From: Aestuariimicrobium kwangyangense DSM 21549
Lineage (GTDB): Bacteria; Actinomycetota; Actinomycetes; Propionibacteriales; Propionibacteriaceae
Direction: 5' to 3'
Assembly: GCF_000421525.1 (NCBI RefSeq)
Contig: NZ_ATXE01000001.1
Location: forward strand, 124,001 to 188,000
DNA length: 64,000 bases
How positions within the stretch are numbered: the first letter of the stretch is position 1; every line of letters begins with the position of its first letter. The translations under genes and the position numbers were made by a program. Positions 4,459 through 38,931 of this stretch are shown in pieces. The notes below the pieces were generated by a model. The model worked only from the letters and a program-made list of their open reading frames with translations, did not search any database and was not told the DNA's origin.

Positions 4459-5940
4459 TCAGGCGCCCTTCTGTTCGCGGGGGGCGACCCCCTGCACCCC
4501 CGCAGGGGCGTCGGTCTGTTCGCGGGGGGCGACCCCCTGCACCCCCGCAGGGGCGTCGGTCTGTTCGCGGGGGGCGACCCCCTGCACCCCCGCAGGGGCG
4601 TCGGTCTGTTCGCGGGAAGTCTCGACGATCGCGTCGATGCAGCGCCGGGCAGAACCGAGGGCGATGCCCTCACCCGACTTCTCCTGCCAGCGGTACGCAC
4701 CGGCCAGGATGGACCCTGCCGCGTGCAGGTTGGAGTAGACGACGGCACCGGTCTCGTCCACCGGCCTCTGCAGGCCATCGGTGCGCAAACCGACGGCGAA
4801 CAGCTTCTGCGGGGCACCCCAGTAGTCCCCGTGCACGAGTTCCTCGATCGGGAGCACACCGTGGAGCGGAAGCCCCAGCGCGGTCTCGTGCAGCTGATCG
4901 TGGGAGTCGAGTTCGAGTGCCCCCGACTCGAACCCGCCTGGTGCGAACACGACGTGGTCGCAGGCGATGTCGCGGTCACCGCCGGCGACGTGCACCGTGA
5001 CGGCGGTGACGCGCTGGTCACCGCCCGCGGACTGTTCGGACTTCACCCCCACCACGGACGACCCGAGCAGCAACCGTCCATGGCCCGCCTTGTAGGCGCG
5101 GGTGAGGGCCTGGTTGAGACGCATGCCCGGCACCGACGGTGGCTGCATGACGATCTCGAAGATGCGAACGCCCGATGCCCGCTCCAGCGTGCTGAGCACC
5201 TCGGGGTGGCGTTCCAGCCCGAGCACGGCGGGAAGCCCGAGCACCGCACCCTCGGGCAGGGCCTGTTCGCGCACATGGGTCGCGAGGCGGTCGGCGAACC
5301 GGCTCAGCGTCGCGGGCTCGTCGAGGGCGCGGGCGTAGACGACAGGGGATGAGTCGATCTCACCGGCACGGGCCAGAAAGTCAAGCGAGCTCCAGCTGGA
5401 CTCGACCGGGCCCACGCCGTCGAGGGGGGTGCGGCCCAGGTTGGTGGCGATCAGTTGGGGATGGAAGTCCTTCAACTGTCGGATGCCCACGATGTGCAGG
5501 TGCTTGCCGGGTTCGGGCGCACCGGCCAGCATCGACACGGGCACGAAGGCGGTGGGCCGCCACGCCCCCACGGCCGTCGGCAACAGCGTGGGACGGCGCA
5601 CGTCACCGCGCATCACCACCGCGCCGGGTGCATCGGCGGCCAGCTCCAGGAACTCGGCGACTCCCCGTTCCACGGCGTCGGCGCCGATGGTGCGGTAGGG
5701 GTGCTCCTCGGGGAGTTCATCGATGGCTGCGAGGGAGTCCGTGACCCGCTCGCTCCCTCGTTCGTCCGTGGCGCGGTAGCCGAGCACGTCAAGGGTTCCC
5801 TGGCTCAGCTGCATGCCACCCAGACCCTGGGTGACCAGGGTGACGCGGTGTCCGGCGCGATCCAGCGCGGTGGCCGCGTAGAGGCCGGCGAACCCGGCAC
5901 CGACGACGACCACCCGCGATCCGGTGGGAGGGGTGGACAT
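4459..5940 (-). CDS. glpB: anaerobic glycerol-3-phosphate dehydrogenase subunit B
   Basis: 493 residues. The N-terminal dinucleotide-binding motif VVVGAGFAGLYAA and overall sequence fit GlpB, the second flavoprotein subunit of the anaerobic enzyme. The family is usually near 420 residues. The excess here is a C-terminal tail (about residues 443-491) made of three perfect copies of REQTDAPAGVQGVAP, encoded by a 45-bp tandem repeat. The start codon shares one base with the glpA stop (TGATG), so translation is probably coupled. The catalytic body appears intact; the repeat tail follows the conserved part and looks acquired. Confidence 0.9.
   Translation of the reverse strand: MSTPPTGSRVVVVGAGFAGLYAATALDRAGHRVTLVTQGLGGMQLSQGTLDVLGYRATDERGSERVTDSLAAIDELPEEHPYRTIGADAVERGVAEFLELAADAPGAVVMRGDVRRPTLLPTAVGAWRPTAFVPVSMLAGAPEPGKHLHIVGIRQLKDFHPQLIATNLGRTPLDGVGPVESSWSSLDFLARAGEIDSSPVVYARALDEPATLSRFADRLATHVREQALPEGAVLGLPAVLGLERHPEVLSTLERASGVRIFEIVMQPPSVPGMRLNQALTRAYKAGHGRLLLGSSVVGVKSEQSAGGDQRVTAVTVHVAGGDRDIACDHVVFAPGGFESGALELDSHDQLHETALGLPLHGVLPIEELVHGDYWGAPQKLFAVGLRTDGLQRPVDETGAVVYSNLHAAGSILAGAYRWQEKSGEGIALGSARRCIDAIVETSREQTDAPAGVQGVAPREQTDAPAGVQGVAPREQTDAPAGVQGVAPREQKGA
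4471..4615. repeat. 45-bp in-frame tandem repeat, 3 copies plus 10 bp
   Basis: Identical units at 4471-4515, 4516-4560 and 4561-4605, then a 10-bp partial copy. Each unit is 15 codons and carries a stem-loop (CCCCTGC, loop, GCAGGGG) next to a G5/C5 inverted pair. The repeat lies inside the 3' end of glpB, just before the glpC ribosome binding site. Confidence 0.97.
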
Positions 5941-27029: not shown

Positions 27030-27307
27030 AGCTGCGCCATGATCTGCTTGCCGGCCACGATGAAGGCGATGCCCAAGACGACGGCCACCAGCACGACGCC
27101 GAAGCACAGGGTGCTGAGCACCCGGCCCGACATCGACATGGTGCCCGTCTCGACGTGCCCGTCGGCGCTCACCGTGCGGCCCAGGGTGGTGGCTCGCATG
27201 CCCAGCGCGAAGATCGCCGGGACACCGGCTCCGAGCACGAGCGCGACGGCCATCACGGTGGCCAGGTTCCGGGCCATGGCGGCCACGTCGAACTGCATGA
27301 GCGTCAT
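27026..27307 (-). CDS. small two-helix membrane protein of pit operon
   Basis: 93 residues with two transmembrane helices (about 13-35 and 62-84) and no recognised family. The ATG overlaps the PiT stop (ATGA), and its own stop overlaps the DUF3349 start, so the three genes form a tightly coupled unit. It may modulate the transporter; this is inferred from context alone. Confidence 0.75.
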   Translation of the reverse strand: MTLMQFDVAAMARNLATVMAVALVLGAGVPAIFALGMRATTLGRTVSADGHVETGTMSMSGRVLSTLCFGVVLVAVVLGIAFIVAGKQIMAQL

Positions 27308-28545
27308 GCCAACACCTTCGCTTCGCTCGGGGCCCCACCGGCCAGTTGCGTGGCGGGGCCGGTCAGGCCACCGAGGGGACGAGCCGTAGGCACCAGGCCT
27401 CCGTCCCACTCGTCGTTCACGTTGTCGTGGTGGATCGGGTTGCGGCGGGCGCGGCGCAGGATCAGTAGCGAGGCGGCCACGAGCAGCACCACGACGGCAG
27501 CCTCACCTCCCAGACCGGGGACCAGTCGCACGAGCAGCTCGCAGAGGCCCCCCACCAACGCGGCAGCCGGCAGGGTGATCAGCCAGGCCACCACCATGCG
27601 TCCGGCCACCGACCAGCGCACGACAGCTCCGGACTTGCCGACTCCGGTGCCCAGGATCGAGCCCGTCGCGACATGGGTGGTCGACAGCGACATGCCGGCG
27701 TGGGACGAGGACAGGATGATCGCCGCCGAGGCGGTCTCTGCCGCCATGCCCTGGGGTGAGTCGATCTCGACCAGTCCCTTGCCGAGGGTGCGGATGACCC
27801 GCCAGCCGCCCGACCAGGTGCCAGCGGCGATGGCGACGGCGCACAGCACCTTGACCCACCACGGAATGCCCTGGGCGACGGTCCACTGACCCGAGGCGAT
27901 CAGCGCGAGGGTGATCACACCCATCGTCTTCTGAGCGTCATTGGTGCCGTGCGCGAGCGAGACCAGGGAGGCGGAGCCGATCTGACCCCACCGGAAGCCG
28001 CGGGAGCGGGTGTGGTCGGGCACCTTCGCGGCGATCCGGTAGACCAGCCAGGTGCCGACCGCTGCCACCACTCCGGCGACCAGCGGCGCTGCGATCGCGG
28101 GGATGGCGACCTTCTCGAGAATGCCCTCCCACTTCACGGCCGAGGTGCCCAGACCGGCGATGGTGGCACCGATGAGTCCGCCGAACAGCGCATGGGAGGA
28201 CGAGGAGGGAATTCCCAGGAGCCACGTGATCAGGTTCCAGAGCACGCCGCCGACGAGCCCGGCGAGTACGACGCCCAGCAGCACGGTGTGGTCGATCGCG
28301 AGTGGTGCGCCGGTGGGGTCCTGGATCTTGATGACGTCCTTGGTGACGGTGAGTGCCACCTGGATCGACAGGAACGCCCCGACCAGGTTGAGCACGGCCG
28401 ACAGGCCGACAGCCGTGCGTGGCTTGAGCGCCCCGGTGGCGATGGAGGTGGCCATCGCGTTGGCGGTGTCATGGAAGCCGTTGGTGAAGTCGAAAGCCAG
28501 GGCGACGACGATCACCGCCCCCAGGATGATGAGAACTTCGGTCAC
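27304..28545 (-). CDS. pit: inorganic phosphate transporter, PiT family
   Basis: 413 residues, about ten transmembrane helices. The two inverted PiT repeats are marked by DFTNGFHDTANAMA near the N-terminus and AHGTNDAQKTMG in the second half, the phosphate-binding signatures. It imports metal-phosphate with protons or cations. The GTG at 28545 begins directly with the first helix; an upstream ATG at 28596 would add a basic lead not seen in the family. First gene of a three-gene coupled operon. Confidence 0.93.
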   Translation of the reverse strand: MTEVLIILGAVIVVALAFDFTNGFHDTANAMATSIATGALKPRTAVGLSAVLNLVGAFLSIQVALTVTKDVIKIQDPTGAPLAIDHTVLLGVVLAGLVGGVLWNLITWLLGIPSSSSHALFGGLIGATIAGLGTSAVKWEGILEKVAIPAIAAPLVAGVVAAVGTWLVYRIAAKVPDHTRSRGFRWGQIGSASLVSLAHGTNDAQKTMGVITLALIASGQWTVAQGIPWWVKVLCAVAIAAGTWSGGWRVIRTLGKGLVEIDSPQGMAAETASAAIILSSSHAGMSLSTTHVATGSILGTGVGKSGAVVRWSVAGRMVVAWLITLPAAALVGGLCELLVRLVPGLGGEAAVVVLLVAASLLILRRARRNPIHHDNVNDEWDGGLVPTARPLGGLTGPATQLAGGAPSEAKVLA

Positions 28546-28702
28546 ACCAAAATGGTGCGCCCGCCGCGCCCGCGCCACCAAACCGCTGGGAAGCAATCAG
28601 GGGGGTTGTTTGCCCAGTGTTCATCTTGGGCGCAGCGATCTGTGACCAAGATCACCACCGTGGCGACGTCCGAGCCCAGCGTGGGGGCCACCAGAACAGC
28701 AG

Positions 28703-28753: not shown

Positions 28754-29704
28754 TCAGGCGAGGTGCGACAGATTCGGTTCGATCGACCCGATCAGCGGAC
28801 GAAGGTGGTTGTAGGCAATCCGCAACCCCTCGATGTTCTTCTCGGGGTCACCTCCCCACAGCGGGTCCTCGTGCTCGACCGAGAGGGTGCCGGTGTAGCC
28901 GACCTCGTAGAGCTTGTCGACGACCTTGGCCCAGTCGACGGTGCCACGGCCGGGGATCCGGTAGCGCCACCAGCCCATGTACCAAGGGTTGCCGCCCTTG
29001 TTGATGGTGCCGTAGAAGCCCATCTCGTTCCGCTTGCGCGGGAACAGTTCGAGGTCCTTGGCCTGGGCGTGCACGATGTACTCGGCGAAGGGCTCGATGG
29101 TCTCGACGGGGTCGATGCCGATCCACGTGAGGTGGCTCGGGTCCCAGTTGAGGAACAACCCCAACTCCTTGCACATCCACTCCCACAGTTCCGGGGAGTA
29201 CGCGATGTTTCCGGGGTAACCGTCGGGGTGCCAACCCTCCATCACGCAGTTCTCGATGACGACCTTGACGCCCTTCTCGCCAGCGTGGTCGGTGATCTCG
29301 GGGAAGACCCGCTCCGCCTCCCGCTGGTTCTCGTTGATCGACTTGGCCATGTCACGTCCGATGAAGGTGCCCGCGGTGGGCACCTCCAGGGCCGCGGCCA
29401 TGTCGATCACCTTCTTGAAGTGTTCACGGATCTGGCCCCGCCGCTCGAGGTCACCGTTGAGGTTGTTCTCGTAGTAGGCCAGCGAGGTGATCTCGAGGCC
29501 CGTGCGCTCGCGGATGGCGTTGACCCGCTCGACCTCGGCATCGAGGTTCGAGACGTCGATGTGCGAGGCCTCGAAGTCGCGAGTGGCGGGGCCACCGGGC
29601 CAACAGGCCACCTCGAGGGTCTGGTAGCCCTGTTCGACCGCGTAGTCGGCGATCTGTTCGAGCGACCACGACGGCAGACAGGCCGTCAGGAATCCCAACT
29701 TCAT
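28754..29704 (-). CDS. sugar phosphate isomerase/epimerase (TIM barrel)
   Basis: 316 residues of the xylose-isomerase-like barrel. Metal-site motifs are VIENCVMEGW, LNWDPSHLTW, VHAQAKDLE and SVEHEDPLW. It belongs to a different branch from the barrels at 9035 and 30942. Last gene of a three-gene cluster with a Gfo/Idh dehydrogenase (22 bp upstream) and a second isomerase. A shared pathway for a sugar or cyclitol that is oxidised, then isomerised, is likely; the substrate is not known. Confidence 0.9.
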   Translation of the reverse strand: MKLGFLTACLPSWSLEQIADYAVEQGYQTLEVACWPGGPATRDFEASHIDVSNLDAEVERVNAIRERTGLEITSLAYYENNLNGDLERRGQIREHFKKVIDMAAALEVPTAGTFIGRDMAKSINENQREAERVFPEITDHAGEKGVKVVIENCVMEGWHPDGYPGNIAYSPELWEWMCKELGLFLNWDPSHLTWIGIDPVETIEPFAEYIVHAQAKDLELFPRKRNEMGFYGTINKGGNPWYMGWWRYRIPGRGTVDWAKVVDKLYEVGYTGTLSVEHEDPLWGGDPEKNIEGLRIAYNHLRPLIGSIEPNLSHLA

Positions 29705-29725
29705 GTGCGTGCCTTTCCCGATCCG

Positions 29726-30817
29726 TCAGAAGTTGACCGGCTGGCCCGACTTGGCCGAGGCGTAGATGGCCTCCAGGATCTGGGTCACGACCAGCGCCTG
29801 CTCGGGCTTGACCACCAGTTCGCTCTCGCCCTTGACGGCACCGTAGAAGGCCTTGGCCTCGTTGGTGGCGTCGTTCGCGGCGCCTGCTCCCGGTGAGAAG
29901 AACCGCGAGGTGTCCGACTTGGTGAGCACGGTGCGGCCGGCCACGACATTGTTGATGGTGGCCTGGTAGGCACCACCGTCGTGGTCGAGTTCGACGCCAC
30001 CCTTGGTGCCGGCGAGGGTGACCGCGGCCTCACGCGAGTGCGCGAAGTTGATCGCCCAGGCCGCCTCGAGGAAGATCATGGCGCCGTTCTTCATCTTCAC
30101 GTAGCCGAAGGCTGAGTCCTCGGTCGAGAAGTTGTCCTGCGGGAAGTCCGAACCGGCCTCGCCGTAGGGGATGTCGGCGATCTTGTGGAAGACCGACCCG
30201 TTGACCGACTCGACCTCGTAGTTGTCCATCAGCCACAGCGACAGGTCGAGGGCGTGGGTGCCGATGTCGATCAGCGGGCCACCGCCCTGCTTCTCGACAT
30301 CGGTGAAGACGCCCCAGGTGGGCACGCCACGGCGGCGGATGGCGTGGGCCTTGCCGACGTAGATGTCACCGAGCAGGCCGTCGTCGACAGCCTTGCGGGC
30401 CATCTGCACGTCGTCGCGGTAGCGGTTCTGGTAGCCGATCGACAAGATCTTGCCGGTCTTCTTGGCGGTGTCGACCATCTGCTTGGCCTCGGCCGACGAG
30501 ATGGCCATGGGCTTCTCGCACAGCACGTGCTTGCCGGCCTCGAGGGCGGCACAGGTGATCTCGGCGTGGCTGACGTTCCAGGTGCAGACGTGGATCACGT
30601 CGATGGTCTCGTCGGCCACCACCTGCTTCCAGTCGTTGGTGGTGTAGCTGCCCTCGACGCCGTACTGCGCGATGTACTCGTCGCACTTCTCCTGCTCGAA
30701 GTCGCAGAAGGCGATGATGTCGACGTCGTCGGAGACCGACGCCAGGCCGGGCAGGTGCTTGCCTCGCGCGATGAAGCCGAGGCCGATGATCCCGACGCGG
30801 ATCTTCTTGTCACTCAT
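29726..30817 (-). CDS. Gfo/Idh/MocA family oxidoreductase
   Basis: 363 residues. NAD(P)-binding GIIGLGFIARGKH (residues 9-21), the CEKPMAIS motif, and GGGPLIDIGTHALDLSLW with the catalytic-region Asp and His. AAGGACATTC precedes the ATG at 30817; the upstream open frame is shadow. It is flanked by two TIM-barrel isomerases in one orientation. Similar in kind to, but distinct from, the dehydrogenase at 7914. Confidence 0.92.
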   Translation of the reverse strand: MSDKKIRVGIIGLGFIARGKHLPGLASVSDDVDIIAFCDFEQEKCDEYIAQYGVEGSYTTNDWKQVVADETIDVIHVCTWNVSHAEITCAALEAGKHVLCEKPMAISSAEAKQMVDTAKKTGKILSIGYQNRYRDDVQMARKAVDDGLLGDIYVGKAHAIRRRGVPTWGVFTDVEKQGGGPLIDIGTHALDLSLWLMDNYEVESVNGSVFHKIADIPYGEAGSDFPQDNFSTEDSAFGYVKMKNGAMIFLEAAWAINFAHSREAAVTLAGTKGGVELDHDGGAYQATINNVVAGRTVLTKSDTSRFFSPGAGAANDATNEAKAFYGAVKGESELVVKPEQALVVTQILEAIYASAKSGQPVNF

Positions 30818-30941
30818 GAATGTCCTTATTGAGGGTGTGTTGACGGAACGTGTCTTGACGAAAGGTTTGGTGCTGGAGGGGGTGGTGGTGCGTGGGTGGG
30901 GCCGCAGCGCTGCCGGTCCCGGGGGTGCTGGGAGCGAACTC

Positions 30942-31697
30942 TCAGCGGTTCTGCAGGTAGGCGATCGACGCGACGACCTCGTCGAGGATGTCACCGTCGG
31001 TCTTGTCGAACTCGACCACCCAGGTCTTGTCCTCGGTGGCACCCAGCAGGGTGTCGAGGTCCATGCTGCCCTGCCCGAGCACCACGTTGGCGGGCTGCTC
31101 GTCGTGCTTCTCCCTCGAGAACTCGCGGGTGACGGGGGCGGGGCCGTCCTTGATGTGCAGGTGGGTGACGCGGTCACCCAGACGCTGCACCAGTTCGACC
31201 GGGTCGAGACCGGCCACCGAGACCCAGTAGGTGTCGATCTCGAGCACCACCTCGGGGTCGAGCAGGCTGACGAAGTAGTCGTAGGAGTTGACGCCGTCGA
31301 AGTCGGTGAAGAACTCGAAGTGGTGGTTGTGGTAGCCGACCTTGAGTCCCTCGGGGGCTGCCTTGCGGGCGGCCTCGTTGAGCTGGGTGGCCAGCTCCTG
31401 GATGCCTTCCTTGGTCGTCCACTTCTGGGGATCGAAGAAGGGCTGCACCAGCGTGGTGCCACCGACCTCCTTGAGGGCGGCGACCGAGTTGTCGAAGTCG
31501 CCCAGCAGGTCGGTGTGGGTGGTGGTCACCTTCAGTCCGCGCTTGGCGAGGGCGGCGGGCAGCCACTCCCGGAACTGGGTGATGCCGAAGGGCTCGACCT
31601 CGGTGATACCGGTGCCGGCCACGACATCGAGGGCGTGCTCGGCGTCGCGCTCGAGCTCCTCGCGGATGGTGTAAAGCTGCAGGGACAGATTGCTCAT
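30942..31697 (-). CDS. sugar phosphate isomerase/epimerase (TIM barrel)
   Basis: 251 residues starting MSNLSLQLYTIREEL, the compact branch of the family. Motifs include KVGYHNHHFEF, LEIDTYWVSVAG and HLHIKDGP, providing the Glu, Asp and His metal ligands. It leads the three-gene cluster; a 124-bp gap separates it from the Gfo/Idh gene, large enough for a second promoter. An imperfect 24-bp palindrome lies 66 bp upstream of the ATG. Confidence 0.9.
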   Translation of the reverse strand: MSNLSLQLYTIREELERDAEHALDVVAGTGITEVEPFGITQFREWLPAALAKRGLKVTTTHTDLLGDFDNSVAALKEVGGTTLVQPFFDPQKWTTKEGIQELATQLNEAARKAAPEGLKVGYHNHHFEFFTDFDGVNSYDYFVSLLDPEVVLEIDTYWVSVAGLDPVELVQRLGDRVTHLHIKDGPAPVTREFSREKHDEQPANVVLGQGSMDLDTLLGATEDKTWVVEFDKTDGDILDEVVASIAYLQNR

Positions 31698-31762
31698 GGG
31701 TTCCACTCTTCCTTGACTGGATTCCTCCGCGCAGGAGGACGACGATGTTTCCTGGCTCCATT

Positions 31763-31786
31763 CAAACAGAGTGGCCATTCAGTTTG
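31763..31786. promoter_or_regulatory. 24-bp palindromic operator candidate
   Basis: Arms begin and end CAAAC/GTTTG and meet at TGGCCA; 10 of 12 arm positions are complementary. It lies 66-89 bp upstream of the isomerase ATG and overlaps TACAAA, a possible -10 box on the minus strand. The binding protein is unknown. Confidence 0.5.
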
Positions 31787-33180: not shown

Positions 33181-35472
33181 GTGCCAGCGACACCAGCCCT
33201 GCCTTCCGCCGACGCCGCTCCGCTCGCGGATGCCCCAGCCCGCGCCGTGGCCGCCAGCGGGTCGGTCCCCCGGCTGGGCATCCTGACCTCCGGAGGCGAT
33301 GCCCAGGGCATGAACGCGGCCGTCAGGGCCGTCGTCCGCACCGCGCTCTCGATGGGCGCCGAGGCCTTCGCCATCTACGAGGGCTACCAAGGCATGATCG
33401 AAGGCGGCGACGGGATCAAGCAGTTCAGCTGGGACGACGTCGGCTCGGTGTTGCACCGCGGTGGCACCGTCATCGGCACCTTTCGCAGTCTCGACTTCAA
33501 GGAGCGTTGGGGACGCAAGAAGGCCGCCGCGAACCTGGTCGACCGCGGGATCGACCGGCTGATCGTGATCGGCGGTGACGGGTCCCTGTCGGGCCTCGAC
33601 CTGTTCTCACGCGAGTGGCCGGGCCTGCTCGACGAACTGGTCGCCGAGGGGCGCATCAGCCAGACCAGCGCCGACGCCCACCCCGCCCTGATGATCGCCG
33701 GACTGGTCGGTTCCATCGACAACGACCTGGTGGGAACCGAGACCACCATCGGCGCCGACAGCGCCCTGCACCGCATCATCGACGCGCTCGACGCGCTCTC
33801 GTCCACCTCGGCCAGCCACCAGCGCCGCTTCGTGGTCGAGGTGATGGGACGACACTGCGGCTACCTGGCGCTGATGTCGGCGATCGCCGGCGGGTGCGAC
33901 TGGGTGTTCGTACCCGAGAACCCGCCCGCCGACGGGTGGGAGGACAGGATGGCTGCCGCCCTCAGCCGTGGCCGAGCCCAAGGTCGCCGCGAGTCGATGG
34001 TGATCGTGGCCGAGGGCGCCCAGGATCGGCACGGCACCCCGATCACGGCCCGCCTGGTGGCCGATGTCATCAAGGACAAACTCAACGAGGACGCCCGAAT
34101 CACCATCCTGGGTCACGTGCAGCGGGGCGGTCGTCCCAGTGCCTACGACCGGTGGGCCTCGACCTGGCTGGGGTACAAGGCCGTGCACCAGGTTCTCGCC
34201 GCCCGGCCGGGGGATGCGGGCACCGTGCTCGGCATCCGCGGCAACAGGGTGGCCGCCTTCGACCTGGTCGAGGCGGTCGAGCGCACCCGGCAGGTGCCGG
34301 TGCGCATCCAGGAGCAGGACTTCGAGGGGGCCATGCAACTGCGAGGGGGCTCCTTCCACGAGATGGCCGACATCTTCGACGAGTTGAACAATCCCGAGCA
34401 CGTCGAGTCGTCCTCCCCCGACACCCAGCGGATCGCGGTCCTGCACGCCGGTGGACTGGCGCCCGGCATGAACACCGCCGCCGAGGCGGCGGTGCGGTTG
34501 GGCCTGAGTCGGGGATTCAGCGTGCTGGGGGTCCGCAACGGCTTCGACGGGCTGCGAGACGGCGACCTCACCGAACTCGGCTGGGGCGACGTCGAGGGCT
34601 GGATGGGCGAGGGCGGGGCCAACCTGGGCACCAAGCGCGACGTGCCCGAGATCGAGCACCTCTACTCCATCTCACGGGCCATCGAGGACAACCGGATCTC
34701 GGCCCTGCTGGTGGTCGGCGGCTTCAATGCCTACGAAGGGGCCTGGCTGCTCAACCACGAACGCGACCGCTACCCCGCCTTCAACCTGCCCATCGTGTGC
34801 GTGCCCGCCAGCATCGACAACAACCTGCCGGGCTCGGAACTCTCGGTCGGCGCGGACACCGCCCTGAACGCCATCACCGAGTCGATCGACCGCATCAAGC
34901 AGTCCGGTACGGCGACGAAACGTTGCTTCGTGATCGAGACGATGGGACGCCAGTGCGGCTACCTGGCCGCCATCGGCGGACTGGCCGGCGGTGCGGAGCG
35001 GATCTACCTGCACGAGGAAGGCATCACCCTCGACGACCTGGTCACCGATCTGGAGTGGATGCGTGACTCCTTCGCGACCGGACGACGCCTGTTCCTGGCG
35101 GTGCGGAGCGAGGGCGCCAATGACCACTACACCACCGACTTCCTCGCCCGACTGTTCGACGAGGGGGGTGGCGACCTCTTCGACGTGCGCCAGTCCATCC
35201 TCGGTCACCTGCAGCAGGGCGGGAACCCGACCCCCTTCGACCGACTCCTGGCGGTCAGGCTGGTGAGCCGGGCGCTCAATGTCATCGGCGGACAGTTCGC
35301 GTCCGGGAAGCACGACGGTCTCTACGTCGGCCTCACAGCTTCCGGGATCGAGACCGGCAACCTGGCCCACTTCCACGAAGTGATGGACATGAAGCACCGG
35401 CGCCCACTGGAGCAGTGGTGGCTGGAACTGGGGCCGATCGTGCAGGCGACCGCGCACGGGCCGGGAGCGTAG
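33181..35472 (+). CDS. two-half (eukaryotic-type) 6-phosphofructokinase
   Basis: 763 residues with two tandem PFK domains (about 30-400 and 415-755), twice the bacterial length. The N-half is catalytic-looking: SGGDAQGMN (37-45), ATP-type GGDGS (131-135), and SIDND (178-182) with base Asp180. The C-half keeps the fold but is degenerate: AGGLAPGMN, GGFNA (513-517) and SIDNN (544-548). LGHVQRGG and LGHLQQGG occur once per half, and the C-terminal EQWWLELGPI is like animal enzymes. Gly rather than Lys before the SIDND motif and GGDG rather than GGDD predict ATP, not pyrophosphate, as donor. GTG chosen with GACACT 6 nt upstream; residues 1-28 are disordered. Confidence 0.9.
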   Translation: MPATPALPSADAAPLADAPARAVAASGSVPRLGILTSGGDAQGMNAAVRAVVRTALSMGAEAFAIYEGYQGMIEGGDGIKQFSWDDVGSVLHRGGTVIGTFRSLDFKERWGRKKAAANLVDRGIDRLIVIGGDGSLSGLDLFSREWPGLLDELVAEGRISQTSADAHPALMIAGLVGSIDNDLVGTETTIGADSALHRIIDALDALSSTSASHQRRFVVEVMGRHCGYLALMSAIAGGCDWVFVPENPPADGWEDRMAAALSRGRAQGRRESMVIVAEGAQDRHGTPITARLVADVIKDKLNEDARITILGHVQRGGRPSAYDRWASTWLGYKAVHQVLAARPGDAGTVLGIRGNRVAAFDLVEAVERTRQVPVRIQEQDFEGAMQLRGGSFHEMADIFDELNNPEHVESSSPDTQRIAVLHAGGLAPGMNTAAEAAVRLGLSRGFSVLGVRNGFDGLRDGDLTELGWGDVEGWMGEGGANLGTKRDVPEIEHLYSISRAIEDNRISALLVVGGFNAYEGAWLLNHERDRYPAFNLPIVCVPASIDNNLPGSELSVGADTALNAITESIDRIKQSGTATKRCFVIETMGRQCGYLAAIGGLAGGAERIYLHEEGITLDDLVTDLEWMRDSFATGRRLFLAVRSEGANDHYTTDFLARLFDEGGGDLFDVRQSILGHLQQGGNPTPFDRLLAVRLVSRALNVIGGQFASGKHDGLYVGLTASGIETGNLAHFHEVMDMKHRRPLEQWWLELGPIVQATAHGPGA

Positions 35473-35483
35473 AACCCTCGGAC

Positions 35484-35489
35484 TAGGGT
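35484..35489 (+). promoter_or_regulatory. -10 box, leaderless start of luxS-pfs
   Basis: TAGGGT, 7 nt before the luxS ATG at 35497. Confidence 0.65.
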
Positions 35490-35496
35490 GGGCGTC

Positions 35497-35970
35497 ATGA
35501 CCCAGAAGATGAACGTCGAGAGCTTCAACCTCGACCATCGCACCGTGGCGGCGCCCTACGTCCGCGTGGCCGACACCAAGCAATTGCCCGGCGGTGACGT
35601 GCTCACCAAGTACGACGTGCGCTTCACCCAGCCCAACCAGTCGCACCTGGAGATGCCGACGGTGCACTCACTCGAGCACACCATCGCCGAGAAGATCCGC
35701 GACCACGTCGACAACGTGATCGACGTGTCGCCGATGGGCTGCCAGACGGGCTTCTACGTGCTCGTGGTGAACCAGGAGTCGCTCGGCGGATTCGAGGGAT
35801 TCCTGACGACGCTCGAGCAGGCCCTCAACGACGTCGTCAACGCCACCGAGGTGCCCGCCGCCAATGAGGTGCAGTGCGGATGGGCCGCCTCGCACACCCT
35901 CGAAGGTGCACAGGCCGCTGCGCGGGAATTCCTGGGCAAGCGCGACGAGTGGGCCCGGGTCACCGCGTGA
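35497..35970 (+). CDS. luxS: S-ribosylhomocysteine lyase
   Basis: 157 residues. LuxS splits S-ribosylhomocysteine to homocysteine and DPD, the AI-2 precursor. Metal ligands are His57 and His61 (HSLEH, with catalytic Glu60) and Cys127 (VQCGW); catalytic Cys82 is in MGCQTGFY. All key residues are present. The stop overlaps the GTG of pfs, giving a luxS-pfs operon that runs the two-step detoxification of S-adenosylhomocysteine. Confidence 0.95.
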
Positions 35971-36773
35971 GTTCCTCCCCCCTCCCGGAGAACCCCGTCC
36001 ACTCGAATCCCGGCCACTCGAATCCCGGCCACTCGAATCCAGGCCACTCGAACCCCGCCCGGTCGACGACAGCAGACCGGACGAGGGTTCGCGCCGTCAT
36101 CGTGGCAGCCATGGAGTCGGAGTTCGCGCCCCTCCTGGCCCGTGGTGAGGTGACCGGCGACGCGGTGGAGGTCGGCGGCGCCCGGTTGCAGCCGGCCCGC
36201 CTGGCCGAGTCCGAGGTGCTGCTGGTCAGGTCGGGCATCGGTCTGGTCAACGCGGCCCTCGCCACCACCGCCGCGCTGCTGCGCCTGTCCGGGGAAGGAC
36301 TCGAACCGGGCCTGGTCGTCTCGGTGGGGTCAGCCGGCGGGTTCGCCGGGGCCGTCTCGGTGGGTCAGGTGGCCGTCGGCAGCGAACATCGCCACCACCA
36401 GGCCGACGCGGTCGCCTTCGGTTACGTGCTGGGACAGGTGCCGGGCATGCCGGAGCACTTCCCTGCCGACCCCTCGGCCCTGGCCGCCGTGGCCGGGCTG
36501 GACGGGGTGGTCGTCGGACCCCACGCATCGGCCGACGTGTTCGTGGCCGGTCCGCTGATCGAGAAGGTGCTGGCTGACTTCCCCGGGACGGTCGCCGTCG
36601 AGATGGAGGCCACGGCCATCGCCCAGGTGGCGCACTCGTTCGGCATCGGTTTCGTCTCGGTGCGCGGTATCTCCGACCTGTGCGGGGTCGACGCGGCCGC
36701 TGACCATGCGGCCACGGTCGATCGGGTGAGCGCTGCGGCCGCCGAGGTGGTCCTGCGCATCCTGTCGTCCTGA
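35967..36773 (+). CDS. mtnN: 5'-methylthioadenosine/S-adenosylhomocysteine nucleosidase with repeat-bearing N-terminus
   Basis: 268 residues. Hydrolyses S-adenosylhomocysteine to adenine and S-ribosylhomocysteine, which is the LuxS substrate. The catalytic fold starts at [14 protein letters not shown] (about residue 45) and includes [10 protein letters not shown] and [13 protein letters not shown]; the Asp of GISD (RGISDLCG) is the catalytic acid. Ahead of it is a disordered extension of about 45 residues with (GHSNP) repeats from a 15-bp tandem repeat. The GTG overlaps the luxS stop. No internal start would preserve the first beta strand, so the extension is probably translated. Confidence 0.9.
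36000..36059. repeat. 15-bp in-frame tandem repeat, four copies
   Basis: Units of CACTCGAATCCCGGC at 36000-36014, 36015-36029, 36030-36044 and 36045-36059; the last two carry substitutions. It encodes HSNPG repeats at the N-terminus of the nucleosidase. Confidence 0.95.
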
Positions 36774-36912: not shown

Positions 36913-38931
36913 GTGAAGATCATGTTCGTGTCGATGCACACCTCCCCCGTCGCCACCCCCGGGTCGGGGGACGCGGGAGGCATGAACGTCGTCGAATGGA
37001 ACATCGCCACCGCCCTGGCTCGGCAGGGGCACGACGTCACCTTGGTCACCCGCAAGTCCAGCCCGGACGATGCCGACAGCACCGAGGTCGGCCCCGAGGG
37101 CGCACCCGGGCGGATCACCCTGGTGACGCTGCCCGCCGGCCCCCTGGCTCCCTTGGCGAAGTCGGAGATCGACGCCCACATCGACGAGTTCCGGGCCGGG
37201 CTCGCCGGGCTCGAGGCCCCCGGGATCGTCCACTCCCACCACTGGATGTCGGGGGTGGCCGCCCTCGACGTGGCCCGTGGGTGGCGGGTGCCGCACGTGC
37301 AGAGCTTCCATTCGGTCGCGGCCCTGCCGGGATCCCCCTTGTCGAGCGGGGAACCCCCGGAGTCGCCAGCCCGCGTTCCCGGGGAGCGGGTCACCGCCCA
37401 GACCTCCGATGCCGTGGTCGCCATCTCGGCCGCGGAGGCCGGAACGGTGGTGCAACGCTGCGGGGCCAACCCCGATCGGGTGCACATCGTGGCCCCTGGC
37501 GTCGACCGCACCCAGTTCTTCCCACGCCCGGGCGGAGTGGTGGGACCGGATCGGGACGATCCCGGGTACGCCGTCTTCGCGGCGCGGCTGCAACCTCTGA
37601 AGGGGCCAGACCTCGCCATGCGCGCCCTCGCCCATGTCGAGAAGTGGCTTCGCCCACGGCTGGTGATCGCCGGCGACTACTCCGCCGACTTCGCCGACTA
37701 CGGACGAGACCTCGCCGCGCTCGTGGGGCGGCTGGGGCTGTCCGAGGAGGTCGAGTTCGTGGGCGGTCAGGACCGCGAGTCGCTGGCCGAACTGATCCGC
37801 GGGGCCCGGCTGATGCTCGTCCCCTCGCACTCGGAGACCTTCGGGCTGATCGCGCTGGAGGCCGCGGCTTCCGGGGTGCCCGTGATCGCCGCCGCCGCGG
37901 GTGGTCTGCGTGAGGCGGTCGTGCACGGCGAAACGGGGCAACTGATGGACTCCCGCGACCCGGCCGAATGGGGCAAGGCAATCACGCACGTGCTCACCAC
38001 CCCGGGGCTGCACGAGCGAATGAGTGTCGTCGCGCCCATCCACGCCCGTCGCTTCGACTGGAACCACACGGCCACCGCGCTGGTGGAGCTGTACGAGTCG
38101 CTCACCTCGCGGGCCCATGCCCACCCGACCTCGACCCAGGAGTCGTCCGTGACCCACCCCCTGCTCGACGACGTGCGACGTGTCGCCATCGTGCACGCCC
38201 ACCCCGACGACGAGACGATCGCCACCGGTGCGCTGATCGCCCACCTGCGCGAACGCGGGGTCGAGGTGAGGGTGCTGACCGCCACCCGTGGGGAACGCGG
38301 TGAGATCGTGCCGGGAACCTTCGACGTCAGTGACGCCGACGCCCTGCACCACGCCGACGACCTCGATGCCGAACGCGAACGTGAACTGGCGCGGGCGCTC
38401 GCCACCCTGGGGGTGGAACGCGCCGAGTTCCTCGGCCAGGGCAGCGCGCGGGTCGCGGGACTGCAGGAACGCCGCTACTCCGACTCGGGCATGCGCTGGG
38501 TCACCCCGTCGGTCGCCGGACCTGCCCTCGACTCCCCCGATCACGCGTTCAGCCTGTCGCCGGTCGACGAGGTCGCCGGCGACATCGCCGCCTGGCTCGA
38601 GTCGGTGCGGACCGATCTGGTGATCACCTATGACGAACTCGGCGGGTATGGGCACCCCGACCACGTGCGTGCCCGTGAGGCGGTCGAGATCGCGACCCGG
38701 CGACTTCGTCTGCCGTTGGCCGAGGTGTTCCAGGCGGGCCACTCGGAGCGCTTCGGCGAGGGCTCGATCGGTGAGGGGGTCGAGTGGCTCGACCTCACCG
38801 ACAAGCTCGGGGTCGTGAAGCGAGCACTGGGCCAGCACCGCACGCAGTTGACCGTGGACGGCGACGACATCGTGCACGTCGGCGGTCAGCGCGAGCCGAT
38901 CACCGTCCGCGTCGGGTTGCGCGAGGTCTAG
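36913..38931 (+). CDS. MshA-MshB fusion: mycothiol glycosyltransferase plus GlcNAc-inositol deacetylase
   Basis: 672 residues in one uninterrupted frame. Residues 1-395 are a GT4 glycosyltransferase of the MshA type: GSGDAGGMNVVEWNIA at the nucleotide/inositol-phosphate site, ARLQPLKGPD, and the EX7E pair Glu308/Glu316 in HSETFGLIALEA. Residues 420-672 are a PIG-L deacetylase of the MshB type: zinc site HAHPDDE (428-434), GERGEIV, and GYGHPDH (578-584). The 25-residue linker is Thr/Ser/His-rich. MshA and MshB catalyse the first and third steps of mycothiol synthesis and are normally separate. AGGAG lies 6 nt before an in-frame GTG at 38149, so a free deacetylase of 260 residues may also be made. 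Confidence 0.9.
   Translation: MKIMFVSMHTSPVATPGSGDAGGMNVVEWNIATALARQGHDVTLVTRKSSPDDADSTEVGPEGAPGRITLVTLPAGPLAPLAKSEIDAHIDEFRAGLAGLEAPGIVHSHHWMSGVAALDVARGWRVPHVQSFHSVAALPGSPLSSGEPPESPARVPGERVTAQTSDAVVAISAAEAGTVVQRCGANPDRVHIVAPGVDRTQFFPRPGGVVGPDRDDPGYAVFAARLQPLKGPDLAMRALAHVEKWLRPRLVIAGDYSADFADYGRDLAALVGRLGLSEEVEFVGGQDRESLAELIRGARLMLVPSHSETFGLIALEAAASGVPVIAAAAGGLREAVVHGETGQLMDSRDPAEWGKAITHVLTTPGLHERMSVVAPIHARRFDWNHTATALVELYESLTSRAHAHPTSTQESSVTHPLLDDVRRVAIVHAHPDDETIATGALIAHLRERGVEVRVLTATRGERGEIVPGTFDVSDADALHHADDLDAERERELARALATLGVERAEFLGQGSARVAGLQERRYSDSGMRWVTPSVAGPALDSPDHAFSLSPVDEVAGDIAAWLESVRTDLVITYDELGGYGHPDHVRAREAVEIATRRLRLPLAEVFQAGHSERFGEGSIGEGVEWLDLTDKLGVVKRALGQHRTQLTVDGDDIVHVGGQREPITVRVGLREV
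38138..38151 (+). promoter_or_regulatory. internal ribosome binding site and GTG within the mshA-mshB frame
   Basis: AGGAG (38138-38142), 6-nt spacer, GTG (38149-38151) exactly at the linker/deacetylase border. It could give separate translation of the MshB half. Confidence 0.5.

What the first reader, a model, noticed from the sequence alone, without database searches (positions are those of the whole stretch)
33181..35472. Eukaryotic-type tandem phosphofructokinase in a bacterium
The 763-residue protein has a catalytic N-half and a degenerate C-half (GGDGS replaced by GGFNA, SIDND by SIDNN), with LGHVQRGG and LGHLQQGG once per half and an EQWWL tail. This is the layout of animal and fungal PFK, where the C-half is a regulatory module. 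Bacterial enzymes are usually single-domain. The ATP-type residues also contrast with the PPi-PFK typical of propionibacteria.
Basis: partly seen in the sequence, partly recalled or inferred. Interest (0 to 1): 0.8.

Follow-up and report, generated by a model that had tools for sequence, protein, structure and literature searches.

The report
Animal-like phosphofructokinase in propionibacteria relatives
This bacterium carries the double-length, regulated version of a key sugar-burning enzyme that textbooks assign to animals and fungi; such bacterial copies were already on record, but they descend from the same ancient gene fusion and keep the sugar-sensing pocket although the enzyme that makes its known signal was not found.

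Summary
Window 33181-35472 (+) encodes a 763-residue tandem phosphofructokinase that matches the NCBI model 6PF1K_euk over its whole length (980 bits, cut-off 708) and is 46-48% identical to human PFKP and PFKL. Its N-half has a complete ATP-type active site. Its C-half has lost the ATP/Mg site but keeps the sugar pocket.

It is not unique. Full-length homologues are in 57 of 87 genomes sampled from its family and in 18 genomes from 8 other actinomycete families. Published bacterial cases exist in Propionibacterium freudenreichii (2004) and Chloroflexota (2021).

Trees of the separate halves show one duplication and fusion shared with animals and fungi; independent duplication is rejected (AU p < 1e-60). 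For the C-half, descent from within animals or fungi is disfavoured (p about 0.01-0.02); the N-half is uninformative. The direction of transfer relative to eukaryotes as a whole is unresolved.

The C-half effector pocket, which binds fructose 2,6-bisphosphate in eukaryotes, is conserved above background, yet no 6PF2K/PFKFB gene was found in 37 genomes. Best reading: an ATP-dependent glycolytic PFK tuned by another phosphosugar, probably fructose 1,6-bisphosphate, beside a PPi-PFK in the same genome.

The parts
33181..35472 (+). tandem ATP-dependent 6-phosphofructokinase gene (763 aa if the GTG at 33181 is the start)
   Evidence: translation; TIGR02478 980 bits; PDB human PFK matches
33271..34356 (+). 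catalytic N-half (aa 31-392)
   Evidence: all compared active-site positions match human PFKP except C98->S103: GGDGS 131-135, SIDND 178-182, R215, M222-G223-R224, E278, R306, H312, R315
33571..33585 (+). GGDGS (aa 131-135): ATP-type donor signature
   Evidence: sequence; GGDG versus GGDD rule from PMC12203962
34429..35454 (+). regulatory C-half (aa 417-758)
   Evidence: second PF00365 copy; clusters with animal and fungal C-halves at 100/100 support
34717..34731 (+). GGFNA (aa 513-517): lost Mg/ATP aspartate; W/F/Y/L/I in all 73 bacterial tandem PFKs, F in the six eukaryotic ones
34810..34824 (+). SIDNN (aa 544-548): C-half keeps the first Asp; animals and fungi have SNN
34636..35400 (+). span of the retained sugar-phosphate effector pocket in the C-half: R486, N547, R581, M588, E644, R670, H676, Q678 (R740 less conserved)
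   Evidence: site positions recalled from the UniProt PFKP record, not fetched

Best explanation
The gene encodes an ATP-dependent glycolytic 6-phosphofructokinase of the eukaryotic tandem type. Shown by sequence: the N-half has the catalytic residues and the ATP donor signature; the C-half is very unlikely to be a kinase because the Mg/ATP aspartate is replaced by a bulky residue, but it keeps the sugar-phosphate pocket. Shown by trees: one duplication and fusion of a bacterial PfkA-like gene produced this enzyme and the animal/fungal one, and the bacterial copies show no sign of being a recent gift from an animal or fungus. Inferred: the C-half is an allosteric sensor for a phosphorylated fructose. 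Because no 6PF2K/PFKFB gene was found, the ligand is probably fructose 1,6-bisphosphate (product activation) or fructose 6-phosphate rather than fructose 2,6-bisphosphate. Inferred: it drives irreversible glycolysis while the separate PPi-PFK carries the reversible glycolytic/gluconeogenic flux.
For: Family and fold. Catalytic positions identical to human PFKP except C98->S103. Separate halves: N with eukaryotic N at 100/99, C with eukaryotic C at 100/100; independent duplication rejected, p-AU 2e-63 and 4e-88. Bacterial C-half inside animals or inside fungi: p-AU 0.012 and 0.017. Sugar pocket: 8 of 17 listed positions at least 98% conserved in 73 bacterial sequences against 13% of C-half columns, Fisher p 0.0004, while the GGDGS equivalent is degenerate. 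No 6PF2K domain in own or 36 relatives. PPi-PFK elsewhere in the genome. GC 69.2% against 68.3% of the window, so not a recent compositional foreigner.
Against: No activity or ligand has been measured. The N-half tree does not reject grouping bacteria with animals or with fungi (p 0.36 and 0.47). Only six eukaryotic sequences from two lineages were available, and no Chloroflexota sequence. The retained Asp546 in the pocket might disfavour a second phosphate and so argue for F6P over F1,6BP. The pocket positions are recalled from a database record, although the aligned human letters (R481, T538, R576, E639, R665, H671, R744) fit the recall. The 6PF2K search has limited sensitivity: it did not exceed its cut-off in any control genome.
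Confidence: 0.8

Rival explanations
1. Horizontal transfer from a eukaryote: an actinobacterium acquired the fused gene from an early or unsampled eukaryote and it then spread among actinomycetes. (This rival concerns origin; it can be true together with the functional part of the best explanation.)
For: Patchy spread in the phylum (18 genomes, 8 families outside the home family) and absence from 60 genomes of other families in the order. Bacterial and eukaryotic N-halves are sister groups (93 and 98 bootstrap), which allows either direction.
Against: C-half AU tests reject descent from within animals or fungi. Bacterial C-halves keep older states (D or N at the Asp127 position, MGR) where all six eukaryotic ones have S and a Gly in place of the Arg. 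The C-half tree leans to eukaryotes inside the bacterial spread (90/70, not significant; AU for bacterial C-half monophyly p 0.485).
Confidence: 0.3
2. Independent bacterial duplication that only resembles the animal enzyme by convergence.
For: Single-domain PfkA duplications are easy in principle; both enzymes lost the same Asp of GGDGS.
Against: Holding the bacterial N and C halves together costs 171 log-likelihood units, p-AU 2e-63; one profile spans both halves at 980 bits.
Confidence: 0.01
3. The C-half pocket is a structural relic with no ligand; the C-half only stabilises the oligomer.
For: No 6PF2K found. The review PMC12203962 gives the C-half a role in stability as well as regulation.
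Against: Pocket residues are conserved well above the C-half background and over several families; a relic should drift as the ATP site did.
Confidence: 0.2

Closest known systems
Animal and fungal PFK-1 (human PFKP/PFKL/PFKM, yeast PFK1/PFK2; TIGR02478 6PF1K_euk, InterPro IPR009161)
   Same: Tandem layout, catalytic N-half, degenerate C-half, retained sugar effector pocket, shared duplication; 46-48% identity to human and 39-42% to yeast enzymes.
   Different: Bacterial C-half keeps Asp or Asn where eukaryotes have Ser at the old catalytic-base position, and mostly Arg/Lys in MGR where they have Gly; no yeast N-terminal glyoxalase-like domain; no 6PF2K partner found.
Atypical ATP-PFK of Propionibacterium freudenreichii (Meurice et al. 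2004, In Silico Biol 4:517, cited in PMC2909200, PMC4437456 and PMC1508162)
   Same: Same bacterial family, an atypical ATP-PFK coexisting with a PPi-PFK, as here; probably the same gene family.
   Different: The 2004 paper could not be read here; only its title was seen, so the tandem layout of that enzyme is not confirmed from the text.
Chloroflexus aggregans Cagg_2702 (PMC8004040)
   Same: 747-aa bacterial PFK assigned to 6PF1K_euk, reported in many Chloroflexota.
   Different: Another phylum; reported with low transcript levels beside a bacterial-type PFK.
Bacterial single-domain PfkA
   Same: Each half is a PfkA-type domain; ATP signature.
   Different: About 320 aa, one domain; branches outside the tandem clades.
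PPi-dependent PFK (own genome, NF005121)
   Same: Same superfamily, same reaction on F6P.
   Different: GGDD and PKTIDND signature, single domain, far branch.

Membership tests
6PF1K_euk (eukaryotic-type tandem 6-phosphofructokinase) | Full-length match above the curated TIGR02478 cut-off | tested here: met
   980.4 bits against 708.4
6PF1K_euk (eukaryotic-type tandem 6-phosphofructokinase) | Two fused PFK domains, only the N-terminal one with a complete active site | tested here: met
   two PF00365 copies; C-half GGDGS aspartate lost
6PF1K_euk (eukaryotic-type tandem 6-phosphofructokinase) | Each half branches with the matching half of animal and fungal enzymes | tested here: met
   100/99 and 100/100 support; alternative rejected
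6PF1K_euk (eukaryotic-type tandem 6-phosphofructokinase) | C-half sugar-bisphosphate effector pocket residues | tested here: met
   R486, N547, R581, M588, E644, R670, H676, Q678 and R740 match PFKP; S544, D546 and R590 differ (T, S, G in PFKP)
6PF1K_euk (eukaryotic-type tandem 6-phosphofructokinase) | Activation by fructose 2,6-bisphosphate, inhibition by ATP and citrate | not testable with these tools
   needs enzyme assays; no 6PF2K gene found
ATP-dependent PFK (EC 2.7.1.11) | GGDG rather than GGDD at the donor site | tested here: met
   GGDGS at aa 131-135
PPi-dependent PFK (EC 2.7.1.90) | GGDD and lysine in P(G/K)TIDXD | tested here: not met
   GGDG and VGSIDND; scores to PPi models all below cut-off
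Single-domain bacterial PfkA | One PFK domain of about 320 aa | tested here: not met
   two domains in 763 aa

The most novel reading that the evidence does not exclude
The tandem PFK with its sugar-sensing C-half arose in bacteria and was passed to the ancestor of animals and fungi (or of eukaryotes); the pocket first sensed fructose 1,6-bisphosphate or F6P and was only later taken over by fructose 2,6-bisphosphate when 6PF2K appeared.
Probability: 0.35. Interest if true: 0.75.

Novelty: new member of a known kind. Interest (0 to 1): 0.42.

Why it matters
A recent review presents the duplication and fusion of PFK as a feature of eukaryotic genes and describes the solved bacterial ATP-PFK structures as uniformly single-domain (PMC12203962). 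A family of bacterial tandem enzymes from the same fusion gives an outgroup for the regulatory half. It makes a question testable: did the effector pocket exist before fructose 2,6-bisphosphate signalling, and what did it sense? It is also relevant to flux control in propionic-acid bacteria, which hold ATP- and PPi-PFKs side by side.

Tried and rejected
Structure prediction from a two-row alignment gave mean pLDDT 42 and was not used; no fold search was made. A scan of viral contigs with a tandem alignment found no relative. The only genome-contig scan gave one locus (Tessaracoccus sp. SD287). Phyla other than Actinomycetota could not be sampled because a search must be centred on a held genome. 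Plasmid records gave only single-domain-type matches under 60% identity. Three loci in which the tandem gene is broken into two frames (L065, L066, L067) were checked: L065 shows a frame change near the linker with overlapping frames, the others lie in draft sequence; I do not take them as natural two-gene forms. Neighbouring genes are not conserved across 76 loci apart from the CapA-like gene in the same genus, so there is no operon evidence. An iqtree run was cut by the time limit and replaced by treekit. The PF03332 search and alignment A2 were irrelevant.

Full report
Observation. Pfam PFK matches twice, and the NCBI model TIGR02478 6PF1K_euk matches once over residues 31-758 at 980 bits, well above its cut-off of 708. 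Human PFKP and PFKL structures align over nearly the whole protein, with 46.5% and 47.9% identity; yeast and Pichia subunits are 39-42% identical. The exact start codon is unsure; residues before 30 fall outside the family.

Where it occurs. The window lies in a 3.0-Mb genome of five contigs. A same-genus genome matches at the same contig coordinates as the record named Tessaracoccus sp. SD287, so the host is most likely a Propionibacteriaceae actinobacterium. A match over the TIGR02478 cut-off is found in 57 of 147 genomes sampled around it, all 57 in the same family (87 family members including its own), and in none of 60 genomes of three other families of the order. In wider samples, 18 further genomes in 8 other families of the class and phylum have it, a patchy spread. 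The family copies and the outside copies were read for the alignment: 73 bacterial sequences in all. The literature already has bacterial cases: a 2004 paper whose title reports an atypical ATP-dependent PFK coexisting with a PPi-PFK in Propionibacterium freudenreichii (seen only as a citation) and a 2021 paper reporting a 747-aa 6PF1K_euk protein in Chloroflexus aggregans with homologues in many Chloroflexota. So the finding is real but not new as an architecture.

Catalytic half. Every compared active-site position of the N-half equals human PFKP except C98, which is S103 here: GGDGS, R102, SIDND, R215, M222-G223-R224, E278, R306, H312, R315, and these are essentially invariant in 73 bacterial copies. 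GGDG is the ATP signature and GGDD the PPi signature (PMC12203962). The same genome has a separate PPi-PFK with GGDDT and PKTIDND, 730 bits to the PPi equivalog NF005121. The two enzymes coexist, as reported for P. freudenreichii.

Regulatory half. In the C-half the Mg/ATP aspartate is replaced by W, F, Y, L or I in all 73 bacterial copies and by F in the six eukaryotic ones, so it is very unlikely to be a kinase. The sugar side is kept. Of 17 positions listed for the eukaryotic fructose 2,6-bisphosphate site (numbering recalled from the UniProt PFKP entry; the aligned human letters fit), 8 are at least 98% conserved in bacteria against a background of 45 of 346 columns (Fisher p 0.0004; related sequences are not independent, so this is descriptive). 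Arg486, Arg581, Glu644 and Arg670 are invariant. No 6PF2K domain was found in the own genome or 36 relatives, though that profile did not exceed its cut-off in any control genome, so a diverged kinase is not excluded. In a human PFKP structure this site holds fructose 1,6-bisphosphate (PMC12203962), which makes F1,6BP the first candidate here. This step is inference.

Evolution. N- and C-halves of 21 bacterial and 6 eukaryotic tandem enzymes were treated as separate rows with single-domain PfkA and mixed-group PFKs (LG+C20+F+G4, 338 columns). Bacterial and eukaryotic N-halves form one clade (100/99) and C-halves another (100/100) (quick version). Forcing bacterial N and C together costs 171 log units (p-AU 2e-63), and forcing eukaryotic halves together 170 (4e-88). 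There was one duplication and fusion. Bacterial copies grouped with animals only or fungi only are disfavoured by the C-half (p 0.012, 0.017) but not by the N-half (p 0.36, 0.47). In the C-half, eukaryotes fall inside the bacterial spread without significance (90/70; AU for bacterial monophyly p 0.485). All six eukaryotic C-halves have Ser and a Gly where bacteria have D or N and mostly R or K; the bacterial states are closer to the catalytic ancestor. Descent of the bacterial gene from an animal or fungus is thus unlikely; transfer from an unsampled eukaryote, or from bacteria to eukaryotes, stays open.

Surroundings. Neighbours are a CapA-like gene (-), LuxS, a PNP_UDP_1 nucleosidase and a GT4/PIG-L fusion. 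Apart from the CapA-like gene in the same genus they do not recur beside the gene in 76 loci. The gene's GC is that of the window (69.2 against 68.3%). It stands alone.

Verdict. A long-resident member of a known family, ordinary for its bacterial family, with a good evolutionary question attached.

Noticed in passing
window 36913-38931 (+): One 672-aa frame joins an MshA-like glycosyltransferase (TIGR03449, 292 bits, below its cut-off of 462) to an MshB/Mca-like PIG-L deacetylase (TIGR03445, 121 bits, cut-off 224): a possible fusion of two consecutive mycothiol-pathway-like activities.
   Followed up: partly
window 35488-36773 (+): LuxS (35488-35970) followed by a PNP_UDP_1 nucleosidase-like gene, two steps of S-adenosylhomocysteine recycling, directly downstream of pfk; not found beside pfk in other loci.
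   Followed up: partly
L065 about nt 4800-5150 on the coding strand (G075, one-contig genome): Tandem pfk interrupted by a frame change near the linker between the halves; could be a sequencing error or a natural break.
   Followed up: partly
window 28754-31778 (-): Two xylose-isomerase-like TIM-barrel genes around an oxidoreductase-like frame (sugar-acid or inositol type catabolism), next to a Pit-type phosphate-permease-like frame at 27304-28596.
   Followed up: no
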